DNA from: Elusimicrobium minutum Pei191
GTDB taxonomy: Bacteria; Elusimicrobiota; Elusimicrobia; Elusimicrobiales; Elusimicrobiaceae
Reading direction: 5' to 3'
Assembly (NCBI RefSeq): GCF_000020145.1
Contig: NC_010644.1
Span: 744,001-808,000 of the forward strand
DNA: 64,000 nucleotides
Below are positions 39,350 to 48,641 of the stretch, in pieces. Made by a program: the position numbers and the translations under genes. The notes under the pieces are model-generated. The model was not told where the DNA came from, searched no databases, and saw only the letters and a list, made by a program, of their open reading frames with translations. Each line of letters opens with the position of its first letter. Positions within the stretch are counted from its first letter, which is position 1.

Positions 39350-40582
39350 TTAATATTTATAAGTTAAAAGCCCGCTTCTTAATTTAGGCTCAAACCAGGT
39401 GCTTTTGGGGGGCATAACAAGGCCTGCGTCGGCCACTTTCATAAGTTCGTCCATAGAAGTTGGGAACATTGAAAACGCTGCCGAGTAGCCAAGCTCGTTA
39501 ACATATTTTTCAAGCTCTGCTGTGCCTCTTATGCCGCCTATAAAATCAATGCGTTTGCTTGTTCTTGGGTCGTCAATACCTAAAACGGGACCCAGCAAAT
39601 TATCCTGCAAAATGCTGACATCAAGGCATTTAATGGGGTCGGTTTCGTTAATAATATTTTCTTTAGCTTCAAGCGTGTACCACTGCCCTTTTAAATACAT
39701 ACCGAACTCGTGGCGATTTTGCGGTTTTTTAGTGTCAGTTTTGGTTACGGTAAAACATTTTTCAACTTCCGCCATAAACTGGTCCCGGCTTAAACCGTTA
39801 AAATCTTTAACCGCGCGGTTATAATCCATAATATAAAGTTGTTCAGCGGGGAAAACTACCGCTAAAAAGAAGTTGTAGTTTTCAAGCCCTGTATGTTTAT
39901 GGTTTTCGACTCTTCTTAATTGGGCGGTATTATAAGCGCTGGCCGCCCTGTGGTGCCCGTCCGCTATATAGAGATTGGGAAGTTTGAAAAACTTGCCTTC
40001 TATATCAATAATATCTTTATCATCGCTTATTTTCCAAACGGTATGGCCTATGCCGTCATCAGCCGTAAAGTTATAAATAGGCGTTGTTTTGGCAATCCTT
40101 TCAATTACTTCGTTTAACTCTTTACTGTCTTTATAAGCAAGGAAAACGGGGCCCGTGGTAGCGCCCATGGTGTTGATATGGCGGGTGCGGTCAGCCTCTT
40201 TATCTTTGCGGGTAAATTCATGGCGTTTAATGCGGCCCGCCCCGTACTCAGCCGTGCTTGCCGCCACTACAAAGCCATACTGCTTTCTGCCGTCCATGGT
40301 TTGGGCGTATAAATAAAAGCAGGGTTTATCTTCTTGTATTAAAATGCCTTCGGAAATAAATTTTTCCAAATTTTCTTTACCTTTGGCGTAGACGCTTGGG
40401 TCATAAAGGTCCACATTCTCAGGTAAATCAATTTCAGGTTTTTCAACATGAAGAAATGAAAGCGGGTTGCCTTTGGCAATCTGTCTTGCTTCCTCGGAAT
40501 TTATTACGTCGTAAGGGAAAGATGCTATAAGCTTTTCATCCTTATTAGGCCTTATCGCTTTAAAAGGTTTTACTGTAATCAT
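39350..40582 (-). CDS. DUF1015 family protein
   Basis: The 410-residue protein matches DUF1015: VKPFKAIRPNK at the start, SFPYDVINSEEARQIA near residue 24, SFLHVEKPEIDLPE near 42, RHEFTRKDKEADR near 139 and IADGHHRAASAYN near 210. Its role is not established. It overlaps serA by 4 nt in a serC-serA-DUF1015 operon, a neighbourhood known from other anaerobes, so a link to serine or hydroxypyruvate metabolism is likely but inferred. Confidence 0.88.
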   Translation of the reverse strand: MITVKPFKAIRPNKDEKLIASFPYDVINSEEARQIAKGNPLSFLHVEKPEIDLPENVDLYDPSVYAKGKENLEKFISEGILIQEDKPCFYLYAQTMDGRKQYGFVVAASTAEYGAGRIKRHEFTRKDKEADRTRHINTMGATTGPVFLAYKDSKELNEVIERIAKTTPIYNFTADDGIGHTVWKISDDKDIIDIEGKFFKLPNLYIADGHHRAASAYNTAQLRRVENHKHTGLENYNFFLAVVFPAEQLYIMDYNRAVKDFNGLSRDQFMAEVEKCFTVTKTDTKKPQNRHEFGMYLKGQWYTLEAKENIINETDPIKCLDVSILQDNLLGPVLGIDDPRTSKRIDFIGGIRGTAELEKYVNELGYSAAFSMFPTSMDELMKVADAGLVMPPKSTWFEPKLRSGLLTYKY

Positions 40583-41526
40583 TTGTTCACCTGGTGTAAA
40601 AAAGTTCCTTTATCGGCAAGTTCCTGCACAATTTGAACCGCTACTTCGGCCACAGCATCCTGCGCCTGCTCGGTTGAAGCGCCTATGTGGTGAGTGCCGT
40701 AAATATTAACGGCGGAAGTTACAGGGTCAACAAACTCTTTAGCGTCGGCCTTAGGTTCTTTTTCATAAACGTCTAAAGCGGCCCTTATGCCTTTTTCGGC
40801 GCAGGCTTTTATTAAAGCGTCTTCTTTAACAAGACCTCCGCGCGAAGTGTTTATAAAATAAGCGCCGGGTTTCATGGCTTCAAAAAACTTTTCATCGTAA
40901 AAATGTTTTGTTCCCGCTGTATTGGGCACATGTATTGTAATAATATCGGCTTTTTTAGCAAGGTCATACACATCGCTTACCATTTGAGCTAAGGGAGACT
41001 CTTTTACAAAAGGGTCAAAAGCTATAATTTTTAAACCAAAAGCCTGCGCGCGTTTTGCCACCTCACGCCCGATATGACCAAGGCCTATAATGCCCAACGT
41101 TCTGCCGTATAAACCTTTGGCTTTGCTGTATTCGGTTTTATTCCATTTGCCCGCTTTTAAGTCAATAATATTGTCAGGTATTCTCCTGTCTAAAGAAAGA
41201 ATTAGACCCATGGCAAGCTCTGCCACCGCTATGGAGTTTGTGCCCGGGCAATTGCATACGGCAACGCCTTTTGTTTTAGCGTGGTTAATATCAATGGTGT
41301 CATAACCGGCGCCCGCGCGTATAACAAGCTTTAAAGAAGGCGCCGCATCAATGGCTGAGGCGTTAACCTTTGTGCTTCTTACAATAATTATTTCAGCCTG
41401 CTCTGTTTTTTGGGCTTCGGGTAAAGTATTTTCATCCAAAGCGGGGTTTAGAATAATCTCATGCCCTTTTTCTTTTAGAACTTCAACCCAATGTTTGGGG
41501 AATTTATCAGCTATTAAAATTTTCAT
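40579..41526 (-). CDS. serA: D-3-phosphoglycerate dehydrogenase-type 2-hydroxyacid dehydrogenase
   Basis: The 315-residue NAD-dependent dehydrogenase probably oxidises 3-phosphoglycerate, the first serine step. It has GIIGLGHIGREVAKR near residue 145, NTSRGGLVKEDAL near 230 and the catalytic His in YGTHHIGASTEQAQ near 288. It lacks the C-terminal ACT domain, so classical serine feedback is not expected. It lies 1 nt after serC, which supports the serine role over other 2-hydroxyacids. Confidence 0.9.
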   Translation of the reverse strand: MKILIADKFPKHWVEVLKEKGHEIILNPALDENTLPEAQKTEQAEIIIVRSTKVNASAIDAAPSLKLVIRAGAGYDTIDINHAKTKGVAVCNCPGTNSIAVAELAMGLILSLDRRIPDNIIDLKAGKWNKTEYSKAKGLYGRTLGIIGLGHIGREVAKRAQAFGLKIIAFDPFVKESPLAQMVSDVYDLAKKADIITIHVPNTAGTKHFYDEKFFEAMKPGAYFINTSRGGLVKEDALIKACAEKGIRAALDVYEKEPKADAKEFVDPVTSAVNIYGTHHIGASTEQAQDAVAEVAVQIVQELADKGTFLHQVNK

Positions 41527-41527
41527 A

Positions 41528-42679
41528 CTATTTTCTAAGCTCCTTAACTACAAAATCTATTGTCTTGGCAAGTTTTTCAAACTGCTCCGTGCCGTTGATG
41601 TCAACAAACGGGAAACAAGCTATTCTAAGCGAATTATCCTCCACGCTGGAATATTTGCTTATACCGTCGGACAAGCAGCCTTTTCCACATTTTTTTATGG
41701 CTGAGGAAATGTCCGCGTCTTTTAATTTAGAGTCTGTTATTTTTAGTGTTAATGTGGTGTAGGAGCGGTTGTCCTCATCTTTTATTAAAGGTTCAAGATA
41801 ATCTGTTTTAGCGGCAAAGTCTAAAACGGCTTTAGCGTGTTTGCGGCAAAGCTCGTCCATAGCTTTCAACCCGCCGTTTGCAAGCATCCATTTGGCTGCC
41901 TCGTTGGCAAGCCATATGTTAGTCGTGCTTGGGGTGTTAACCGTTTGGTATTTTTTTACCTTGGCAAGAGCTTCCTCAAACTGTAGTATATAAGGAATAT
42001 TACGGCCTGAGGCTTTAATTTCCTCAGCCCTTTTAACAGCTTTGGGGCTTAAAATAATAACGCTTGTTCCGCCCGGCGCGCCAAAACATTTTTGCAAGGA
42101 AAATAACATAACGTCAAATTTGCCCGAGGGTAATAACCTACCCCCGGCGCAGGAAGTGCAGTCCCACGCTATAATAGTGTCCTCTCCTTTTTGGGCCCAG
42201 GCTTCTTCTAAATACTTATTGGAAATCTGCACGCCCATTGATGTTTCATTAGGGGTTAAAATAACCAGGCTTGCTTTGTAATCCGCCTTTTCTTTGGGAA
42301 AGTATTCGCCTTCGGCGGGTGATTTAAAATCTTTTTTAATATCGGACGGTAAAGCACCGGCTATTTTTTTTGCCCATAATTTGGAAAACGCGCCAAAAGA
42401 TAAACCCGAAATAGAATTTTTTGTTAAATTCCATACAATCGCATCCATAGCAGGGGTGGCCCCGCCGTGGAAGAAAAATAATTCATAATCTTGCGGTATT
42501 TGCAAAAGGTTTTTAATGTTTTCCGTAGCTTCTTTATAAAGCCCTTGCGATAAGAGAGCTGACCTGTGGGATTTTTCAAAATATGTTTCGGACAAAGGCG
42601 TGTTTCTAAAGTCAGGGTGCCCCTGGCTGGGCCCGCAAGCGAAGGTAACGTCAGGCAGAATTTCATTAGGTATATTCAT
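41528..42679 (-). CDS. serC: phosphoserine aminotransferase
   Basis: The 383-residue PLP enzyme transfers an amino group from glutamate to 3-phosphohydroxypyruvate. FACGPSQGHPDFRNTPL near residue 13, FFHGGATPAMDA near 69, WDCTSCAGGRLLPSG near 172 and FSLQKCFGAPGG near 192 (PLP lysine) identify it within class V transaminases. It leads the serC-serA-DUF1015 operon with an AGGAGAG site upstream. No serB is in the window. Confidence 0.9.
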   Translation of the reverse strand: MNIPNEILPDVTFACGPSQGHPDFRNTPLSETYFEKSHRSALLSQGLYKEATENIKNLLQIPQDYELFFFHGGATPAMDAIVWNLTKNSISGLSFGAFSKLWAKKIAGALPSDIKKDFKSPAEGEYFPKEKADYKASLVILTPNETSMGVQISNKYLEEAWAQKGEDTIIAWDCTSCAGGRLLPSGKFDVMLFSLQKCFGAPGGTSVIILSPKAVKRAEEIKASGRNIPYILQFEEALAKVKKYQTVNTPSTTNIWLANEAAKWMLANGGLKAMDELCRKHAKAVLDFAAKTDYLEPLIKDEDNRSYTTLTLKITDSKLKDADISSAIKKCGKGCLSDGISKYSSVEDNSLRIACFPFVDINGTEQFEKLAKTIDFVVKELRK

Positions 42680-42697: not shown

Positions 42698-43732
42698 TTA
42701 AGTGTATTGTTTAGCGGCTTTTAATAAACAGTTATTTTCTGTTTTATTGGAAACAGTTATTCTTATTCCGTACCTTGGAAAACAACGCACTACAATTTTA
42801 TTTTTTAATAAATAATTAAAAAAATCAGCTTCTTTAGATATTTTAATAAATAAAAAGTTTGTTTGGCTGGGATATATATAGTTAATAAACGAAAGTTTTT
42901 TAAGTTCTTTTTTCATTCTTTCGCGTTCTTTTAAAATAATTTTTATATTACGCTTGTTTTTAGCCAGCTCTTTTGATGAGGTTAAAAGCTTAACCGCCGT
43001 TGAAATTGACCCGGCCGCCAAAGGATACGGGGGTACTACGGCGTTAAGAACAGTTGTTACTTCTTTTAAAGCTATGGCCGCGCCTACTCTGGCCCCTGCC
43101 ATGGCGCACGCTTTAGACAGCGTTTTTAAAACTATTAAATTAGGATATTTATTTATATATTTGGTAAAGGAATCAGCTTTAGCGAAGTCTATGTAAGCCT
43201 CGTCAAGCACAACCATAGTTGTTTTTTTTGCGGATTTTATAACGGTTAAAATATCTTTTTGGTTAAATAAAACGCCAAGCGGAGCCGAAGGATTTGGAAT
43301 AAAGCATACTTTAGGCTTTTTTGTTTTTATTGTTTTAATTATATTTTTTACATCAAGTTTTTCATCTTTTAAAGGAACTTCTAAAATTTTGGCGTTTTGC
43401 ACTTTGGCGTATACGGAGTACATGCTAAAAGTCGGGGGACATATTAAAACGCTGTCTTTACCGGCGCGGCAAAAAACACGGATAATAAGATCTATGGCGT
43501 TGTCGCTGCCGGCGGTAACGGTAATGTTTTTTTCATTTGCCTTATAATAAGAAGCCAAAGCTTTAATTAATTTTGCGGGCCTTATCATAGGGTAGCGGTT
43601 GCACTCTGGCGCGAAGGGCAGGCAAAAAGGGTTTTCATTGGCGTTAAGGTATATTTTTTTATTATCAAAGTTATCGGCCGCGTAGGGCGAAAGGGCTAAA
43701 AGTTCTTTTCTTACCAAATTTAAAACGGACAT
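42698..43732 (-). CDS. hisC: histidinol-phosphate aminotransferase
   Basis: The 344-residue class I/II PLP transaminase has YLNANENPFCLP near residue 28, VTAGSDNAIDLI near 71, CFIPNPSAPLGVLF near 143, VVLDEAYIDFA near 172 and LKTLSKACAMAGARVG near 202 (PLP lysine). It lies divergent from the TrpR-like regulator and the his operon, sharing a mirrored promoter region. AAGAGG precedes ATG by 6 nt. Specificity for histidinol phosphate is inferred from sequence and context. Confidence 0.92.
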   Translation of the reverse strand: MSVLNLVRKELLALSPYAADNFDNKKIYLNANENPFCLPFAPECNRYPMIRPAKLIKALASYYKANEKNITVTAGSDNAIDLIIRVFCRAGKDSVLICPPTFSMYSVYAKVQNAKILEVPLKDEKLDVKNIIKTIKTKKPKVCFIPNPSAPLGVLFNQKDILTVIKSAKKTTMVVLDEAYIDFAKADSFTKYINKYPNLIVLKTLSKACAMAGARVGAAIALKEVTTVLNAVVPPYPLAAGSISTAVKLLTSSKELAKNKRNIKIILKERERMKKELKKLSFINYIYPSQTNFLFIKISKEADFFNYLLKNKIVVRCFPRYGIRITVSNKTENNCLLKAAKQYT

Positions 43733-43738
43733 AAAAAA

Positions 43739-43802
43739 CCTCTTGACAAAAATGTATTAGTGTAGTACTATAGTAGTACATTAACACAAAGTTGTCAAGA
43801 GG
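43739..43802. promoter_or_regulatory. mirror-image divergent promoters with shared operator (hisC / TrpR-like gene)
   Basis: Plus strand: TTGACA (43743-43748), 17 nt, TACTAT (43766-43771). Minus strand: TTGACA (43798-43793), 17 nt, TACTAT (43775-43770). The -10 boxes overlap in the palindrome TACTATAGTA, within a 20-bp near-palindrome TGTAGTACTATAGTAGTACA (43761-43780). The 64-bp region is bounded by perfect 11-bp arms CCTCTTGACAA / TTGTCAAGAGG that also carry both SD sites. The two promoters cannot be occupied at once. The palindrome is the likely site of the adjacent TrpR-like protein. Confidence 0.85.
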
Positions 43803-43806
43803 TTTT

Positions 43807-44079
43807 ATGAAAAAACATTTATCTTTATTTAAAGCGCTTTTACTGCTTAAAAATGAGAAAGAGGTTGAAAAATTTTTAAAAGATATCTGCACTCCTTCGG
43901 AGTTGCGTGATTTACAGGAACGCTGGCTTGTGGCTCAAATGCTTGAAGAGGGTGATTCCTACCGCGGCATTAATGAAGCCACGGGCATAAGCACCACAAC
44001 GGTGGGCCGTGTGGCCAGGTTTTTAAACGATGAAAATTACGGCGGATATAAACTTATATTAGAGAGAGTAAAAAAGTGA
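43807..44079 (+). CDS. TrpR-like transcriptional regulator, YerC/YecD family (HisR-type)
   Basis: The 90-residue protein has the TrpR fold pattern: LLLLKNEKEVEKFLKDI, CTPSELRDLQERW near residue 32, and a helix-turn-helix SYRGINEATGISTTTVGRVARFL near 52-75. YerC/YecD proteins next to his genes are proposed histidine repressors. Start is ATG 43807 with AAGAGG 4 nt upstream; an in-frame TTG at 43792 is unlikely since it lies before the SD. It overlaps hisG by 4 nt, so it leads the his operon and probably autoregulates through the palindrome at its -10 box. Confidence 0.88.
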   Translation: MKKHLSLFKALLLLKNEKEVEKFLKDICTPSELRDLQERWLVAQMLEEGDSYRGINEATGISTTTVGRVARFLNDENYGGYKLILERVKK

Positions 44080-44963
44080 AAAATAAAGAGACGAGATTAA
44101 ACATAGCTTTACAAAAATCAGGCAGGCTTTCAGAAAAAAGTTTTGAACTTCTTTCCAAATGCGGTTTGGAGCTTGCGCAGGGGAAAAGAAGCCTTATATG
44201 CCGTTCGCAGGAACTTCCGGTAGATGTTTTACTTTTAAGAGATGACGACGTGCCCACCTTTGTTTCCGAAGGCGTGTGTGATATAGGCATTGTCGGGCAA
44301 AACGTGCTTTTAGAGGAAACTTTAGGCACTAAAGAAGGGGAAAATTTGGAAACTGTTATGGAGCTGGGCTTTTCGGGCTGCCGCCTTTCAATAGCGCTTC
44401 CTAAAGAAAAAGAATATAATTCTTTAGAGGATATTAAAGGTTGCAAACTGGCAACCACTTACCCTAAAATACTGCAAAACTTTTTAGATAAAAATAAAAT
44501 TAACGCCATGGCTGTTAAAATGGAAGGTTCTGTTGAAATAGCGCCTTCTTTAGGCCTTGCCGACGGTATTTGCGATATAGTTTCCTCCGGCGCTACATTA
44601 GAAGCGCACGGTTTAGTTGAGGTGGAAAAAATATTCCAATCTCAAGCGGTGCTTGTGGGGCGCAAAAATATGAGCGTCGAAAAAAGAGCGATACTTGTAA
44701 CTATTTTAGAACGTATTAAAGGCGTGAGAGCGGCGGCTAAAAGCAAATATGTTATGTTAAACGCGCCTAAATCTAAATTAAAAGATATCTGCGCTTTATT
44801 GCCTGGTTCCGAATCGCCCACAATAATACCTTTAGCTGATGAAAACAAAGTGGCCGTACACGCCGTTTGTTTGGAGCCTGTATTTTGGTCCACAATGGAA
44901 TCGCTTAAATCGGCGGGCGCTACCAGCGTGCTTATTTTACCTATAGAAAAAATGCTTGTTTAA
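44076..44963 (+). CDS. hisG: ATP phosphoribosyltransferase (long form)
   Basis: The 295-residue enzyme catalyses the first histidine step, ATP + PRPP. LNIALQKSGRLSEKSFELL is the typical start; DIGIVGQNVLLE near residue 70 and GLADGICDIVSSGATLEAHG near 160 bracket the PRPP site. The C-terminal ~75 residues form the regulatory domain of the long HisG type, so no HisZ is needed and direct feedback by histidine is expected. It overlaps the TrpR-like gene by 4 nt. Confidence 0.96.
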   Translation: MKNKETRLNIALQKSGRLSEKSFELLSKCGLELAQGKRSLICRSQELPVDVLLLRDDDVPTFVSEGVCDIGIVGQNVLLEETLGTKEGENLETVMELGFSGCRLSIALPKEKEYNSLEDIKGCKLATTYPKILQNFLDKNKINAMAVKMEGSVEIAPSLGLADGICDIVSSGATLEAHGLVEVEKIFQSQAVLVGRKNMSVEKRAILVTILERIKGVRAAAKSKYVMLNAPKSKLKDICALLPGSESPTIIPLADENKVAVHAVCLEPVFWSTMESLKSAGATSVLILPIEKMLV

Positions 44964-44964
44964 T

Positions 44965-46254
44965 ATGAAAATATATAATTATGCAACTTTAACTAAAAAA
45001 GAAATTAAAGCTTTGTCCGAGCGGTCTTATCTGATGCCTGAAAAATTAAAACAGGCTGTTTGGGAAACGGGCCTTCAGGTTATGAAAAGGGGGGATAAAG
45101 CTATAAAAGAATTAACCGCCGCTTTTGACGGCGTTACTCTTTCGTCCTTAAAAGTAAGCGTGAAAGAATTTAAACAAGCCGAAAAACTTGTAAGCAACGA
45201 GTTAAAAGACGCAATCAAAACAGCATCTGAAAATATAGCTAAATTCCATAAATCGCAGTTAAAAACAAAAGAGCCTGTTATAGAAACATCCAAAGGCATT
45301 GAATGCTGGCGTGAATTTAAGGCTTTGGGTACTGCGGGGCTTTATGTTCCGGGCGGCAGCGCGCCTTTATTTTCAACGGTGCTTATGCTTGCTGTGCCGG
45401 CTAAAATAGCAGGTTGTAAAAAAGTTTATATTTGCACGCCTCCTTGTAAAAACGGGCTTATAGCGCCGGAAATTTTGTTTGCCGCTAAAACCGCGGGAGT
45501 GGATGAGGTTTACAAAATAGGCGGCGCCCAGGCTGTTTTTGCCATGGCTTACGGCACCCAGACAGTGCCCAAGGCGGATAAAATTTTCGGCCCGGGCAAC
45601 CAGTATGTAACGCAGGCCAAAATGGAAGTTTCTTCTTTTACGGCTATAGATATGCCCGCCGGCCCTTCAGAAGTGCTTATAATAGCGGAGGAAAGCACAA
45701 ACGCCTCTTACGCGGCGGCCGACATTTTAAGCCAGGCGGAACACGGGCCTGATTCACAGGCTGTTTTAGCGTGTTCAAGCAAAAATAAAATAAAAGAAAT
45801 TATAGCGGAAGTGGACGCCCAGCTTAAAAAATTGGGAAGAAAAAGCATTGCCGCTAAAGCTTTGGGCAAAAGCTTTATAATGCAAACCCGTAATACTAAA
45901 GAATCAGTCGAGTTTTCCAATATTTACGCGCCTGAGCATTTGATATTAAATTTTAAGGATTGGAAAAAATATTTAACTTCTGTTCAAAACGCGGGCTCTG
46001 TATTTTGCGGAACATTGGCTACAGAGTCTTTTGGCGATTACGCCAGCGGCACTAACCACACTTTACCGACATCGGGCTTCGCCAAAAGTTTTGGCGGATT
46101 AAATACACAAAGTTTCGGTAAATGGATTACTTACCAAACAGTTTCTGCCCAAGGCTTGCGCGGGCTTGGTAAAACGGTTGAAATTATGGCCGAGGCCGAA
46201 GGCCTTACGGCGCACAAAAACGCCGTTACTATAAGGATTGAAAATGAAAAATAA
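44965..46254 (+). CDS. hisD: histidinol dehydrogenase
   Basis: The 429-residue zinc enzyme oxidises histidinol to histidine in two NAD-dependent steps. AGLYVPGGSAPLFSTVLM, GAQAVFAMAYGTQTVPKADK, IFGPGNQYVTQAK, DMPAGPSEVL and ADILSQAEHGPDSQ are all family signatures, as is SGTNHTLPTSGFAK near the end. The ATG at 44965 starts 1 nt after the hisG stop; an upstream in-frame TTG at 44956 lies inside hisG and is less likely. It overlaps hisB by 11 nt. Confidence 0.96.
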   Translation: MKIYNYATLTKKEIKALSERSYLMPEKLKQAVWETGLQVMKRGDKAIKELTAAFDGVTLSSLKVSVKEFKQAEKLVSNELKDAIKTASENIAKFHKSQLKTKEPVIETSKGIECWREFKALGTAGLYVPGGSAPLFSTVLMLAVPAKIAGCKKVYICTPPCKNGLIAPEILFAAKTAGVDEVYKIGGAQAVFAMAYGTQTVPKADKIFGPGNQYVTQAKMEVSSFTAIDMPAGPSEVLIIAEESTNASYAAADILSQAEHGPDSQAVLACSSKNKIKEIIAEVDAQLKKLGRKSIAAKALGKSFIMQTRNTKESVEFSNIYAPEHLILNFKDWKKYLTSVQNAGSVFCGTLATESFGDYASGTNHTLPTSGFAKSFGGLNTQSFGKWITYQTVSAQGLRGLGKTVEIMAEAEGLTAHKNAVTIRIENEK

Positions 46255-47317
46255 AAAAACGCTTTTTATTGACAGGGACGGCACCTTGATTTTTGAGCCG
46301 ATTGCCACAAAGCAAATAAATTCGCTTGATGAAATGTTTTTTACAAAAGGCGTTATCAGCGCTTTAAAACGTTTTAAACAGGCGGGGTACAGCCTTGTTA
46401 TCGTTACCAACCAGGACGCTTTGGGTACACCTGAAAACCCTCGTAAAGTATATGAGAACATTAATAATAAAATGTTCGCAATTTTTGCTTCCGAAGACAT
46501 TTTTTTTAACGCTGTTTTAGAATGCCCGCATAATAAAACGGACGGCTGCGCCTGTCGTAAACCAAAAACTAAATTGGGCGTTAATTACATAAAAAATAAT
46601 CCCGTGGATTTAGAAAATTCTTATATGATAGGGGATAGAGACACCGACGTTGAATTTGGTGAAAACCTTGGCATAAAAAGTTTTAAACTTACTAAAAAAT
46701 TAGGCTGGGCGGAAATAGCGGGTGAAATTTTAGATAAGCCCCGCAAAGCCCAAGTTATAAGAAAAACCAAAGAAACAAACATAAAATTAAACCTTAATCT
46801 TGACGGTAAAGGACAAACAAAAAGTAATACGGGTATTGAATTTTTTGACCACTGCCTTGACCAGCTTGGCAAGCACGGCGGGTTTGATTTGCAAATAAAA
46901 TGCAAAGGCGATTTATGCGTGGACGAACATCACACCGTTGAAGACACGGCGCTCGCGCTGGGGCAAGCCTTTAAAACGGCGCTCGGCGATAAGCGCGGTA
47001 TAGAGCGTTATGCCTGGGAAAGAATTTTAGTTATGGATGACGCTAAAGTTGAAATAAGCATAGATATTTCAAACAGGCCTTACCTTGTTTTTAAAGGCAA
47101 GTTTGACCGTGAATACGCAGGCAAAATGCCCACGGAACTTGTGGAACACTTTTTTGAAAGTTTTGTGTCCGCCTCAGGCATTAATATGAATATAAAAATT
47201 GAGGGTAAAAACACCCACCATAAAATTGAGGCGTGCTTTAAAGCGTTTGCTAGAGTTTTGAGAGATGCCGTTAAAATAACAGGTACTAAAGTGTCCTCAA
47301 CAAAGGGAATTTTATGA
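46244..47317 (+). CDS. hisB: bifunctional histidinol-phosphatase / imidazoleglycerol-phosphate dehydratase
   Basis: The 357-residue fusion carries an N-terminal HAD phosphatase (FIDRDGTLIFEP near residue 7, VIVTNQDALGTP near 53, CPHN..GCACRKPK near 90, MIGDRDTDVEFG near 126) and a C-terminal IGP dehydratase (FFDHCLDQLGKHGGFDL near 200, DEHHTVEDTALALG near 224, KNTHHKIEACFKAFAR near 323). This E. coli-type fusion provides steps 6 and 8 of histidine synthesis. It overlaps hisA by 4 nt. Confidence 0.96.
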   Translation: MKNKKTLFIDRDGTLIFEPIATKQINSLDEMFFTKGVISALKRFKQAGYSLVIVTNQDALGTPENPRKVYENINNKMFAIFASEDIFFNAVLECPHNKTDGCACRKPKTKLGVNYIKNNPVDLENSYMIGDRDTDVEFGENLGIKSFKLTKKLGWAEIAGEILDKPRKAQVIRKTKETNIKLNLNLDGKGQTKSNTGIEFFDHCLDQLGKHGGFDLQIKCKGDLCVDEHHTVEDTALALGQAFKTALGDKRGIERYAWERILVMDDAKVEISIDISNRPYLVFKGKFDREYAGKMPTELVEHFFESFVSASGINMNIKIEGKNTHHKIEACFKAFARVLRDAVKITGTKVSSTKGIL

Positions 47318-48036
47318 TTATCTTTCCCGCCATTGATATTTTAGACGGCAAATGCGTACGTTTATTTAAAGGTGATTTTAATAAGACAACCGTTTATGAA
47401 AACGATCCAGTTAAAACGGCTAAAGACTTTGAGTCGCAAGGCTCAAAATATCTGCACATTGTGGATTTGGACGGGGCCAAAAACCCTTTAAACCGCCAGA
47501 GTGAAATAATAAAGCGTATAGCTCTGGAAACAGAATTAAATATTCAAACAGGCGGCGGTATCAGGAGTGAGGAACAAATAAAAGATTACCTTGATAACGG
47601 CGTATCAAGCGTTATTGTAGGCAGCATGGCCGCGGTTGAGCCTGAAAAGGCCAAAGGGTGGATAAAAACTTTCGGCAAAGAGCGCATAGTGCTTTCTTTA
47701 GATGTAAATATTGTTAATAATGAACCTTTTGTTGCAGCTTACGGCTGGCAGGGCAGCTCCGGCAAAAATCTGTTTGATCTTATAAACGGCTATACATTGC
47801 AAGGCCTGCGGGTTTTATGTACGGACATCAGCCGTGACGGCGCGCTCCAAGGCCCTAATATCGACTTATACAAAAATGTTTTAAACAAATGCCCTGGGGT
47901 TGAACTGCAAGCTTCAGGCGGCGTGGCCGGGCTAAATGATTTGATAAAACTTAAAGAAACGGGTGTTCACGGCGTAATAGTGGGCAAAGCGCTTTATGAG
48001 CGTAAATTTACATTAAGAGAGGCGTTATCAATATGA
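47314..48036 (+). CDS. hisA: phosphoribosylformimino-5-aminoimidazole carboxamide ribotide isomerase
   Basis: The 240-residue TIM barrel has FPAIDILDGKCVRLFKGDF at the start with the catalytic Asp, LHIVDLDGAKN near 46, QTGGGIRSEEQI near 78, CTDISRDGALQGPN near 169 and ASGGVAGLNDL near 196. It catalyses step 4, feeding HisF. Overlaps both neighbours by 4 nt. hisH and hisF, which usually flank hisA, are absent from this operon. Confidence 0.96.
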   Translation: MIIFPAIDILDGKCVRLFKGDFNKTTVYENDPVKTAKDFESQGSKYLHIVDLDGAKNPLNRQSEIIKRIALETELNIQTGGGIRSEEQIKDYLDNGVSSVIVGSMAAVEPEKAKGWIKTFGKERIVLSLDVNIVNNEPFVAAYGWQGSSGKNLFDLINGYTLQGLRVLCTDISRDGALQGPNIDLYKNVLNKCPGVELQASGGVAGLNDLIKLKETGVHGVIVGKALYERKFTLREALSI

Positions 48037-48641
48037 CAGACGTAAATAAAGTTGATTTTAATAAATCCGGCGGTCTTGTTCCCGTTATAGTGCAAGACAA
48101 TAAAACAATGCGGGTATTAATGTTAGGCTATATGAATAAAGAAGCGCTTGAACAAACTTTAAAAACAAAAAAAATAACATTCTTCAGCCGCAGTAAAAAC
48201 AGACTTTGGATAAAAGGGGAAACCAGCGGCAATTTTTTAACGCTTGAAAGCATCAGCCAAGATTGCGATAACGATGCCCTTTTAGCGCGCGCCACGCCCT
48301 TGGGGCCGGTATGCCACACGGGGGAAACTTCCTGCTTTGGCGATGGTTCAGCCAACTCTTTAGCGTGGCTTTCAAAGTTAGAAGACGTAATTGAAAAGCG
48401 TAAAAAAGCGGACCCTAAAGAAAGTTACACAGCAAAACTTTTTGAAAGAGGCATAGAAAGAATAGCCCAAAAAGTGGGGGAAGAAGGCCTTGAAACGGCA
48501 CTTGCCGCGGTAGCTCCGGCTAAAGCGGCGGAATTGCCGGGCGAAGCGGCGGATCTTATATTCCACCTTCTTGTTCTTTTAAATGCGAAAGGACTTAATC
48601 TCGCCGATATCTGCCAAGTTTTAGAACAAAGACATAAATAA
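48033..48641 (+). CDS. hisI: bifunctional PR-AMP cyclohydrolase / PR-ATP pyrophosphatase
   Basis: The 202-residue HisIE fusion has the HisI cyclohydrolase domain (MLGYMNKEALEQTL near residue 30, FSRSKNRLWIKGETSGN near 51, DCDNDALLARATPLGPVCH near 77) and the HisE domain (ARGIERIAQKVGEEGLETALA-like near 133, GEAADLIFHLLVLL near 170). It catalyses steps 2 and 3 and closes the operon before a terminator. Confidence 0.96.
   Translation: MTDVNKVDFNKSGGLVPVIVQDNKTMRVLMLGYMNKEALEQTLKTKKITFFSRSKNRLWIKGETSGNFLTLESISQDCDNDALLARATPLGPVCHTGETSCFGDGSANSLAWLSKLEDVIEKRKKADPKESYTAKLFERGIERIAQKVGEEGLETALAAVAPAKAAELPGEAADLIFHLLVLLNAKGLNLADICQVLEQRHK

What the first reader, a model, noticed from the sequence alone, without database searches (positions are those of the whole stretch)
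43739..43802. Perfectly mirrored bidirectional promoter between hisC and the his-operon regulator
Both strands carry TTGACA-17-TACTAT; the two -10 boxes overlap by two bases in TACTATAGTA, and 11-bp arms make the region symmetrical about 43770.5. RNA polymerase can bind only one orientation at a time, and the central 20-bp near-palindrome is the obvious site for the TrpR-like protein, so one repressor would control both directions equally. Symmetric -10 elements giving divergent transcription are known, but full mirror symmetry with both -35 boxes and both SDs is striking.
Basis: seen in the sequence. Interest (0 to 1): 0.65.

Follow-up and report, generated by a model that had tools for sequence, protein, structure and literature searches.

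The report
HisR operator-centred two-way histidine promoter
A very compact two-way gene switch in a gut bacterium reads histidine-making genes in both directions from one nearly mirror-symmetrical stretch of DNA, which is most likely shut off on both sides at once by a known histidine repressor.

Summary
Both strands carry TTGACA-17-TACTAT, sharing two bases; 30 of 36 pairs about 43770.5 mirror each other, against at most 24 in 100 shuffles of the window. The symmetry ends at the start codons and is weakest in the spacer, so it is functional symmetry, not a perfect palindrome. The downstream gene is HisR (TrpR-family histidine repressor). [quoted passage not shown] Additions: the 20-bp operator (43761-43780) shares its dyad with the promoter and covers both -10 boxes; half-sites flank it exactly 8 bp out on both sides, a spacing enriched at 74 related HisR operators; divergent hisC, serC-like and serA-like genes lie under the same site. 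Two congeneric genomes without detectable hisG or hisD keep hisR and an equivalent site facing the serC-like gene. None of 78 other HisR operators compared has consensus -35 boxes on both sides. Most likely: a bidirectional promoter occluded symmetrically by HisR. Binding and start sites are unmeasured. New member of a known kind.

The parts
43733..43806 (.). 74-bp hisC/hisR intergenic region holding both promoters, the operator and both Shine-Dalgarno sequences
43743..43748 (+). -35 box TTGACA of the hisR-his operon promoter
43766..43771 (+). -10 box TACTAT of the hisR-his operon promoter; start site expected near 43778 (inference)
43793..43798 (-). -35 box TTGACA of the hisC promoter
43770..43775 (-). 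-10 box TACTAT of the hisC promoter; start site expected near 43763 (inference)
43761..43780 (.). central HisR operator TGTAGTACTATAGTAGTACA, 18 of 20 positions symmetrical, covers both -10 boxes
43753..43772 (.). overlapping second operator match shifted by -8 bp; its outer half-site is TGTATTAG 43753-43760
43769..43788 (.). overlapping third operator match shifted by +8 bp; its outer half-site is TTAACACA 43781-43788 (TGTGTTAA on the - strand)
43797..43802 (+). Shine-Dalgarno AAGAGG of hisR; shares 43797-43798 with the -35 box of the hisC promoter
   Evidence: read
43739..43744 (-). Shine-Dalgarno AAGAGG of hisC; shares 43743-43744 with the -35 box of the hisR promoter
   Evidence: read
43807..44079 (+). 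hisR, 90 aa, TrpR-family histidine repressor (TIGR02531 75.1 bits, cut-off 42.2; Pfam Trp_repressor 77.8 bits, cut-off 27)
44076..48641 (+). hisG-hisD-hisB-hisA-hisIE, downstream of hisR in the same direction
42698..43732 (-). hisC, first gene of the divergent transcript (TIGR01141 298.6 bits, cut-off 276.55)
40579..42679 (-). serC-like and serA-like genes behind hisC (18-bp and 1-bp gaps); scores below the curated cut-offs

Best explanation
This is a bidirectional sigma70-type promoter built around one HisR operator whose dyad coincides with the promoter dyad. RNA polymerase binds in one of two mutually exclusive orientations: to the right it makes hisR-hisGDBA-IE mRNA, to the left hisC-serC-like-serA-like mRNA. 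When histidine is plentiful, HisR (with L-histidine as corepressor) binds 43761-43780 and covers both overlapping -10 boxes, so both directions, its own gene included, are shut off together. Flanking half-sites exactly 8 bp out suggest that further HisR dimers bind in tandem (up to three over 43753-43788), as TrpR does. Shown by sequence: the promoters, operator, half-sites, gene identities and the shared register of operator and -10 in relatives. Inferred: promoter activity, HisR binding, histidine as corepressor (shown in print for Ruminococcus gnavus HisR), equal repression, operon extent.
For: Both promoters match 10 of 12 consensus positions with 17-nt spacers. The gene is HisR by NCBIfam, first in a his operon. 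The operator has 12 of 12 positions of TGTANTANNNNNNTANTACA and is the only such 12-of-12 site in the window; 74 of 80 related HisR loci have a site of 9 or more of 12 upstream. The -10 begins at operator position 6 here and in four class-level Elusimicrobiota HisR genes; G187 and G188 have TTGACA/TTGACG at 17 nt. Outer half-sites at 8 bp: 5 of 5 on both sides here. In 39 dereplicated operators of the related loci (window not in that set) the mean at 8 bp is 3.05 and 3.18 of 5, against 1.48 and 1.51 at 9-40 bp. PMC9413887 (passages) reports HisR as a 20-bp palindrome binder, a site upstream of the E. minutum hisR-his operon, and histidine-stimulated binding for R. gnavus HisR. In G067 and G068 the promoter facing the serC-like gene keeps the -35, half-site and -10 of the hisC promoter.
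Against: No start sites, footprints or expression data were available. The 6 loci of 80 without a site of 9 of 12 were dropped, and the consensus was chosen after seeing the E. minutum operator and the published proteobacterial motif, so the counts are not blind. In G067 and G068 hisR itself appears to use another promoter, outside the operator, so autoregulation is not conserved in the genus. hisH-hisF have no HisR-like site, so the regulon would not cover the whole pathway. The expected start-site spacing is 15 bp, inside the published 7-25 bp range but not the commonest 18 bp.
Confidence: 0.8

Rival explanations
1. Only one direction is a regulated promoter; the other -10/-35 pair arose from operator symmetry and is weak or unused.
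For: A palindromic operator that contains a -10 makes a -10-like hexamer on the other strand almost automatically; in most relatives only one side, or neither, has a good -35.
Against: Here both sides have 6 of 6 -35 boxes at 17 nt, an SD and a his gene within 74 bp, leaving little room for another promoter. The hisC-side elements are conserved in G067 and G068 and the hisR-side elements in G187 and G188.
Confidence: 0.1
2. The inverted repeat is a mobile, invertible or structural element (phase switch, transposon end, terminator hairpin), and the promoter resemblance is secondary.
For: 15-bp perfect arms around a 42-bp core.
Against: Single copy in the genome. Inverting the core would leave the same promoters, so it could switch nothing. 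No terminator-like site in the repeat. Rfam matches all below their gathering scores, attributable to the inverted repeat. The predicted leaders fold no better than shuffles.
Confidence: 0.03
3. The mirror symmetry was produced by mutation (template switching that makes a quasi-palindrome more perfect) rather than by selection for two promoters.
For: The arms are perfect over 15 bp; 5 of 6 pairs match between SD and start codon, where little function is expected.
Against: Mismatches concentrate in the spacer where no element is expected (1 of 4 match at d19-22), and symmetry drops to chance beyond the start codons. Each half exists alone in relatives. It could still have contributed to the arms.
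Confidence: 0.15

Closest known systems
HisR regulon (TrpR-family histidine repressor; PMC9413887)
   Same: HisR family, 20-bp palindromic operator, hisR first in a his operon with a site upstream; the paper names a single site upstream of the E. minutum hisR-his operon.
   Different: The passages seen do not mention the divergent hisC of E. minutum, the shared promoter dyad, serC/serA-like genes or half-sites at 8 bp; the supplements, where the site is likely listed, could not be read.
Bidirectional promoters of Warman, Grainger and colleagues (PMC12825309, PMC10268837; the 2021 paper is not held)
   Same: Overlapping opposed -10 elements, one polymerase orientation at a time, predicted starts 15 bp apart (published definition 7-25 bp).
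   Different: The E. coli examples are called pseudo-symmetrical with low basal activity; here both -35 boxes are full consensus and a repressor dyad sits on the promoter dyad. The commonest published spacing is 18 bp.
E. coli bioA/bioBFCD (BirA) and argE/argCBH (ArgR) operators (recalled; no call supports them)
   Same: One biosynthetic repressor and one operator region control two opposed overlapping promoters.
   Different: Different repressor families and operator sizes; symmetry of promoter elements was not compared here.
TrpR tandem operators (PMC8745587 passages; the 8-bp offset and three dimers at aroH are recalled)
   Same: Overlapping sites for tandem dimers of a TrpR-family protein.
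   Different: HisR, not TrpR; tandem binding here is inferred from half-site spacing only.

Membership tests
HisR (YerC/YecD, TIGR02531) | protein above the family cut-off | tested here: met
   75.1 bits against 42.2
HisR (YerC/YecD, TIGR02531) | linked to his genes | tested here: met
   hisG, hisD, hisB, hisA, hisIE downstream, hisC divergent
HisR (YerC/YecD, TIGR02531) | 20-bp palindromic operator of the HisR/TrpR type | tested here: met
   12 of 12 of TGTANTANNNNNNTANTACA, 18 of 20 symmetrical; consensus chosen after seeing the site
HisR (YerC/YecD, TIGR02531) | histidine-stimulated binding to the operator | not testable with these tools
   published for R. gnavus HisR only
TrpR (TIGR01321) | protein above the equivalog cut-off | tested here: not met
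   24.6 bits against 67.25
Bidirectional promoter | opposed -10 elements that overlap, starts 7-25 bp apart | tested here: met
   by sequence only: overlap of 2 bp, expected starts 43778 and 43763 (definition)
Bidirectional promoter | measured divergent start sites | not testable with these tools
   no RNA data held
Invertible (phase-variable) promoter | second orientation found, or recombinase site | not tested
   no reads held; inversion would be silent by symmetry
Tandem TrpR-type operator | second half-sites at 8 bp | tested here: met
   5 of 5 on both sides here; enriched at 8 bp in 39 dereplicated operators
Tandem TrpR-type operator | more than one dimer bound | not testable with these tools
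   needs gel shift or footprint

The most novel reading that the evidence does not exclude
The site is an array for three overlapping HisR dimers centred on the promoter dyad, so that tandem repression is itself mirror-symmetrical; tandem binding at 8-bp offset is a general and so far undescribed property of HisR, and in the Elusimicrobium lineage HisR also governs serine-pathway genes (serC/serA-like), which it keeps controlling in relatives that have lost the his operon.
Probability: 0.35. Interest if true: 0.5.

Novelty: new member of a known kind. Interest (0 to 1): 0.33.

Why it matters
It is a clean natural case of a promoter whose two directions carry equal consensus elements under one repressor dyad. 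It would allow a direct test of polymerase orientation choice and of symmetrical repression, where the published E. [quoted passage not shown] The 8-bp half-site spacing at HisR operators gives a testable rule for reading HisR regulons.

Tried and rejected
Looked for the palindrome upstream of hisH/hisF: not found (best 8 of 12 in 210 nt; genome-wide only the overlapping -8 copy within 3 mismatches). Looked for repeat-element copies: none. RNA control: Rfam matches only below gathering scores, leaders unstructured. Looked for the mirrored pattern in the phylum: 14 of 334 genomes within 1 mismatch, 3 of 334 exact (G000, G101, G322), control pattern 0 in every row listed. Contexts of the 13 non-window matches: the G101 match lies inside a 211-aa ORF; G322 lies between two divergent ORFs but matches in only 14 of 28 inner pairs (the window: 22 of 28, counted); G068 has one beside a regulator-like ORF, 18 of 28. 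So such sites are rare, and most of the others are not mirrored beyond the pattern. A HisR tree was poorly resolved; origin of the gene by transfer remains open. Paper searches for bioO and TrpR tandem operators gave little beyond PMC8745587. No structure prediction was run: it would not decide the question.

In one search the printed '/10' is my label error: the consensus has 12 fixed positions.

Full report
What is there. The 74 bp between hisC (- strand, start 43732) and hisR (+ strand, start 43807) hold two sigma70-type promoters, TTGACA-17-TACTAT on each strand, with the -10 boxes sharing 43770-43771. About 43770.5, 30 of 36 pairs mirror each other; the next best centre in the window has 24, and 100 dinucleotide shuffles of the window never exceed 24. 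The perfect outer arms are 15 bp, not 11. Split by element, symmetry is 9 of 10 in the operator, 6 of 8 in the next eight pairs, 1 of 4 in the rest of the spacer, 6 of 6 in the -35, 6 of 6 in the SD complement, 5 of 6 between SD and start, and 6 of 22 beyond. So it is concentrated where function asks for it. The SD of each gene overlaps by two bases the -35 of the opposite promoter (read).

The organism and genes. The window lies in a single contig of 1,643,562 bases. Its size (recalled) and the hisR-his operon described in PMC9413887 (passages) make Elusimicrobium minutum almost certain; no tool named it. The regulator passes the HisR (YerC/YecD) cut-off and fails the TrpR one. To the right follow hisG, hisD, hisB, hisA, hisIE; to the left hisC, then serC-like and serA-like genes with gaps of 18 and 1 bp. 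The serC- and serA-like names rest on scores below the curated cut-offs. hisF and, by reading its translation, hisH lie elsewhere without a HisR-like site.

The operator. 43761-43780 is TGTAGTACTATAGTAGTACA, 18 of 20 symmetrical, unique in the genome within 3 mismatches apart from an overlapping copy shifted by 8 bp. In the window 6 of all 20-mers reach 10 of 12 of the consensus TGTANTANNNNNNTANTACA, and 3 of those 6 are this site at -8, 0 and +8. I therefore tested the 8-bp spacing in relatives. 74 of 80 have a site of at least 9 of 12 upstream; the other 6 were dropped. A half-site TGTNNTA lies 8 bp further out with mean 2.95 (left) and 3.23 (right) of 5, against 1.41 and 1.49 at 9-40 bp; after dereplication at 70% HisR identity (39 operators) 3.05 and 3.18 against 1.48 and 1.51, with 18 of 39 at 4 or more on each side where about 0.8 and 0.9 are expected. 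One of the 80, L035, is the same contig as that of G068 (same length and position). Five Elusimicrobiota sites (window, G187, G188, G210, G227) score 5/5, 5/4, 5/4, 3/5 and 5/4. The offset matches TrpR tandem operators (tandem dimers: PMC8745587 passages; the 8-bp figure is recalled). The terms '8 bp', 'dimer' and 'overlap' do not occur in the main text of PMC9413887 and 'tandem' occurs there only for codons and riboswitches; searches listed no other paper on it; its supplements could not be read.

Relatives and origin. Only 7 of 340 genomes of the phylum pass the HisR cut-off. In four class-level ones the -10 starts at operator position 6, as here, and G187 and G188 have a good -35 at 17 nt on the hisR side. 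In the two congeneric genomes hisR faces the serC-like gene directly, and hisG and hisD are not found (0 of 2; completeness 88 and 66; each family search also missed 1 of 14 control genomes). Their serC-side promoter aligns with the hisC promoter of the window through the -35, outer half-site and -10, with site scores 11 and 10 of 12, while their hisR promoter appears to lie outside the site. Of 79 operators compared, counting the window, only the window has 6 of 6 -35 boxes on both sides. The simplest history is that both promoter halves, each seen alone in relatives, sit on one operator here; the direction of change cannot be settled with three genomes.

Mechanism. HisR bound at the dyad would cover both -10 boxes, so both operons and hisR itself are repressed together; when it leaves, polymerase binds one way or the other. 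Bidirectional promoters with starts 7-25 bp apart are known (PMC10268837 passages), and competition between orientations has been shown in E. coli when activity rises (PMC12825309 abstract, introduction and discussion). With two consensus -35 boxes, competition seems more likely here than at the E. coli cases; this is inference.

Verdict. A real, compact and rare arrangement of known parts. The regulator, its operator class and a site at this operon were in print; the shared dyad with divergent hisC, the serine-pathway link and the 8-bp half-site rule are additions from sequence that need binding data.

Noticed in passing
L008 / G000:C1:602258-602497, with L007, L028, L029, L032: A second TrpR-family gene sits just before a trpB-like gene (name from reading, no family call) and is preceded by a 20-bp palindrome TGTTTCTATATGTAGAAACA; perfect versions (TGTTTCTATATATAGAAACA or TGTTTCTATGCATAGAAACA) precede relatives in other Elusimicrobiota. 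It may be a lineage-specific trp regulator with its own operator.
   Followed up: partly
L016 (G068) and L017 (G067): hisR is kept next to serC-like and serA-like genes in genomes where hisG and hisD were not found, with a HisR-type site facing the serC-like gene.
   Followed up: partly
L115 (G068:C1:411941-411996), locus 1501-1556: Another mirrored promoter-like site with a palindromic centre TCTGATAAAATCGTATCAGA beside a divergent ORF that reads like a helix-turn-helix regulator (no family search): the same layout with another repressor family.
   Followed up: no
HisR tree: The Elusimicrobium HisR is up to 64% identical to alphaproteobacterial HisR but 44-54% to class-level Elusimicrobiota ones, which hints at transfer; the tree does not resolve it.
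   Followed up: partly
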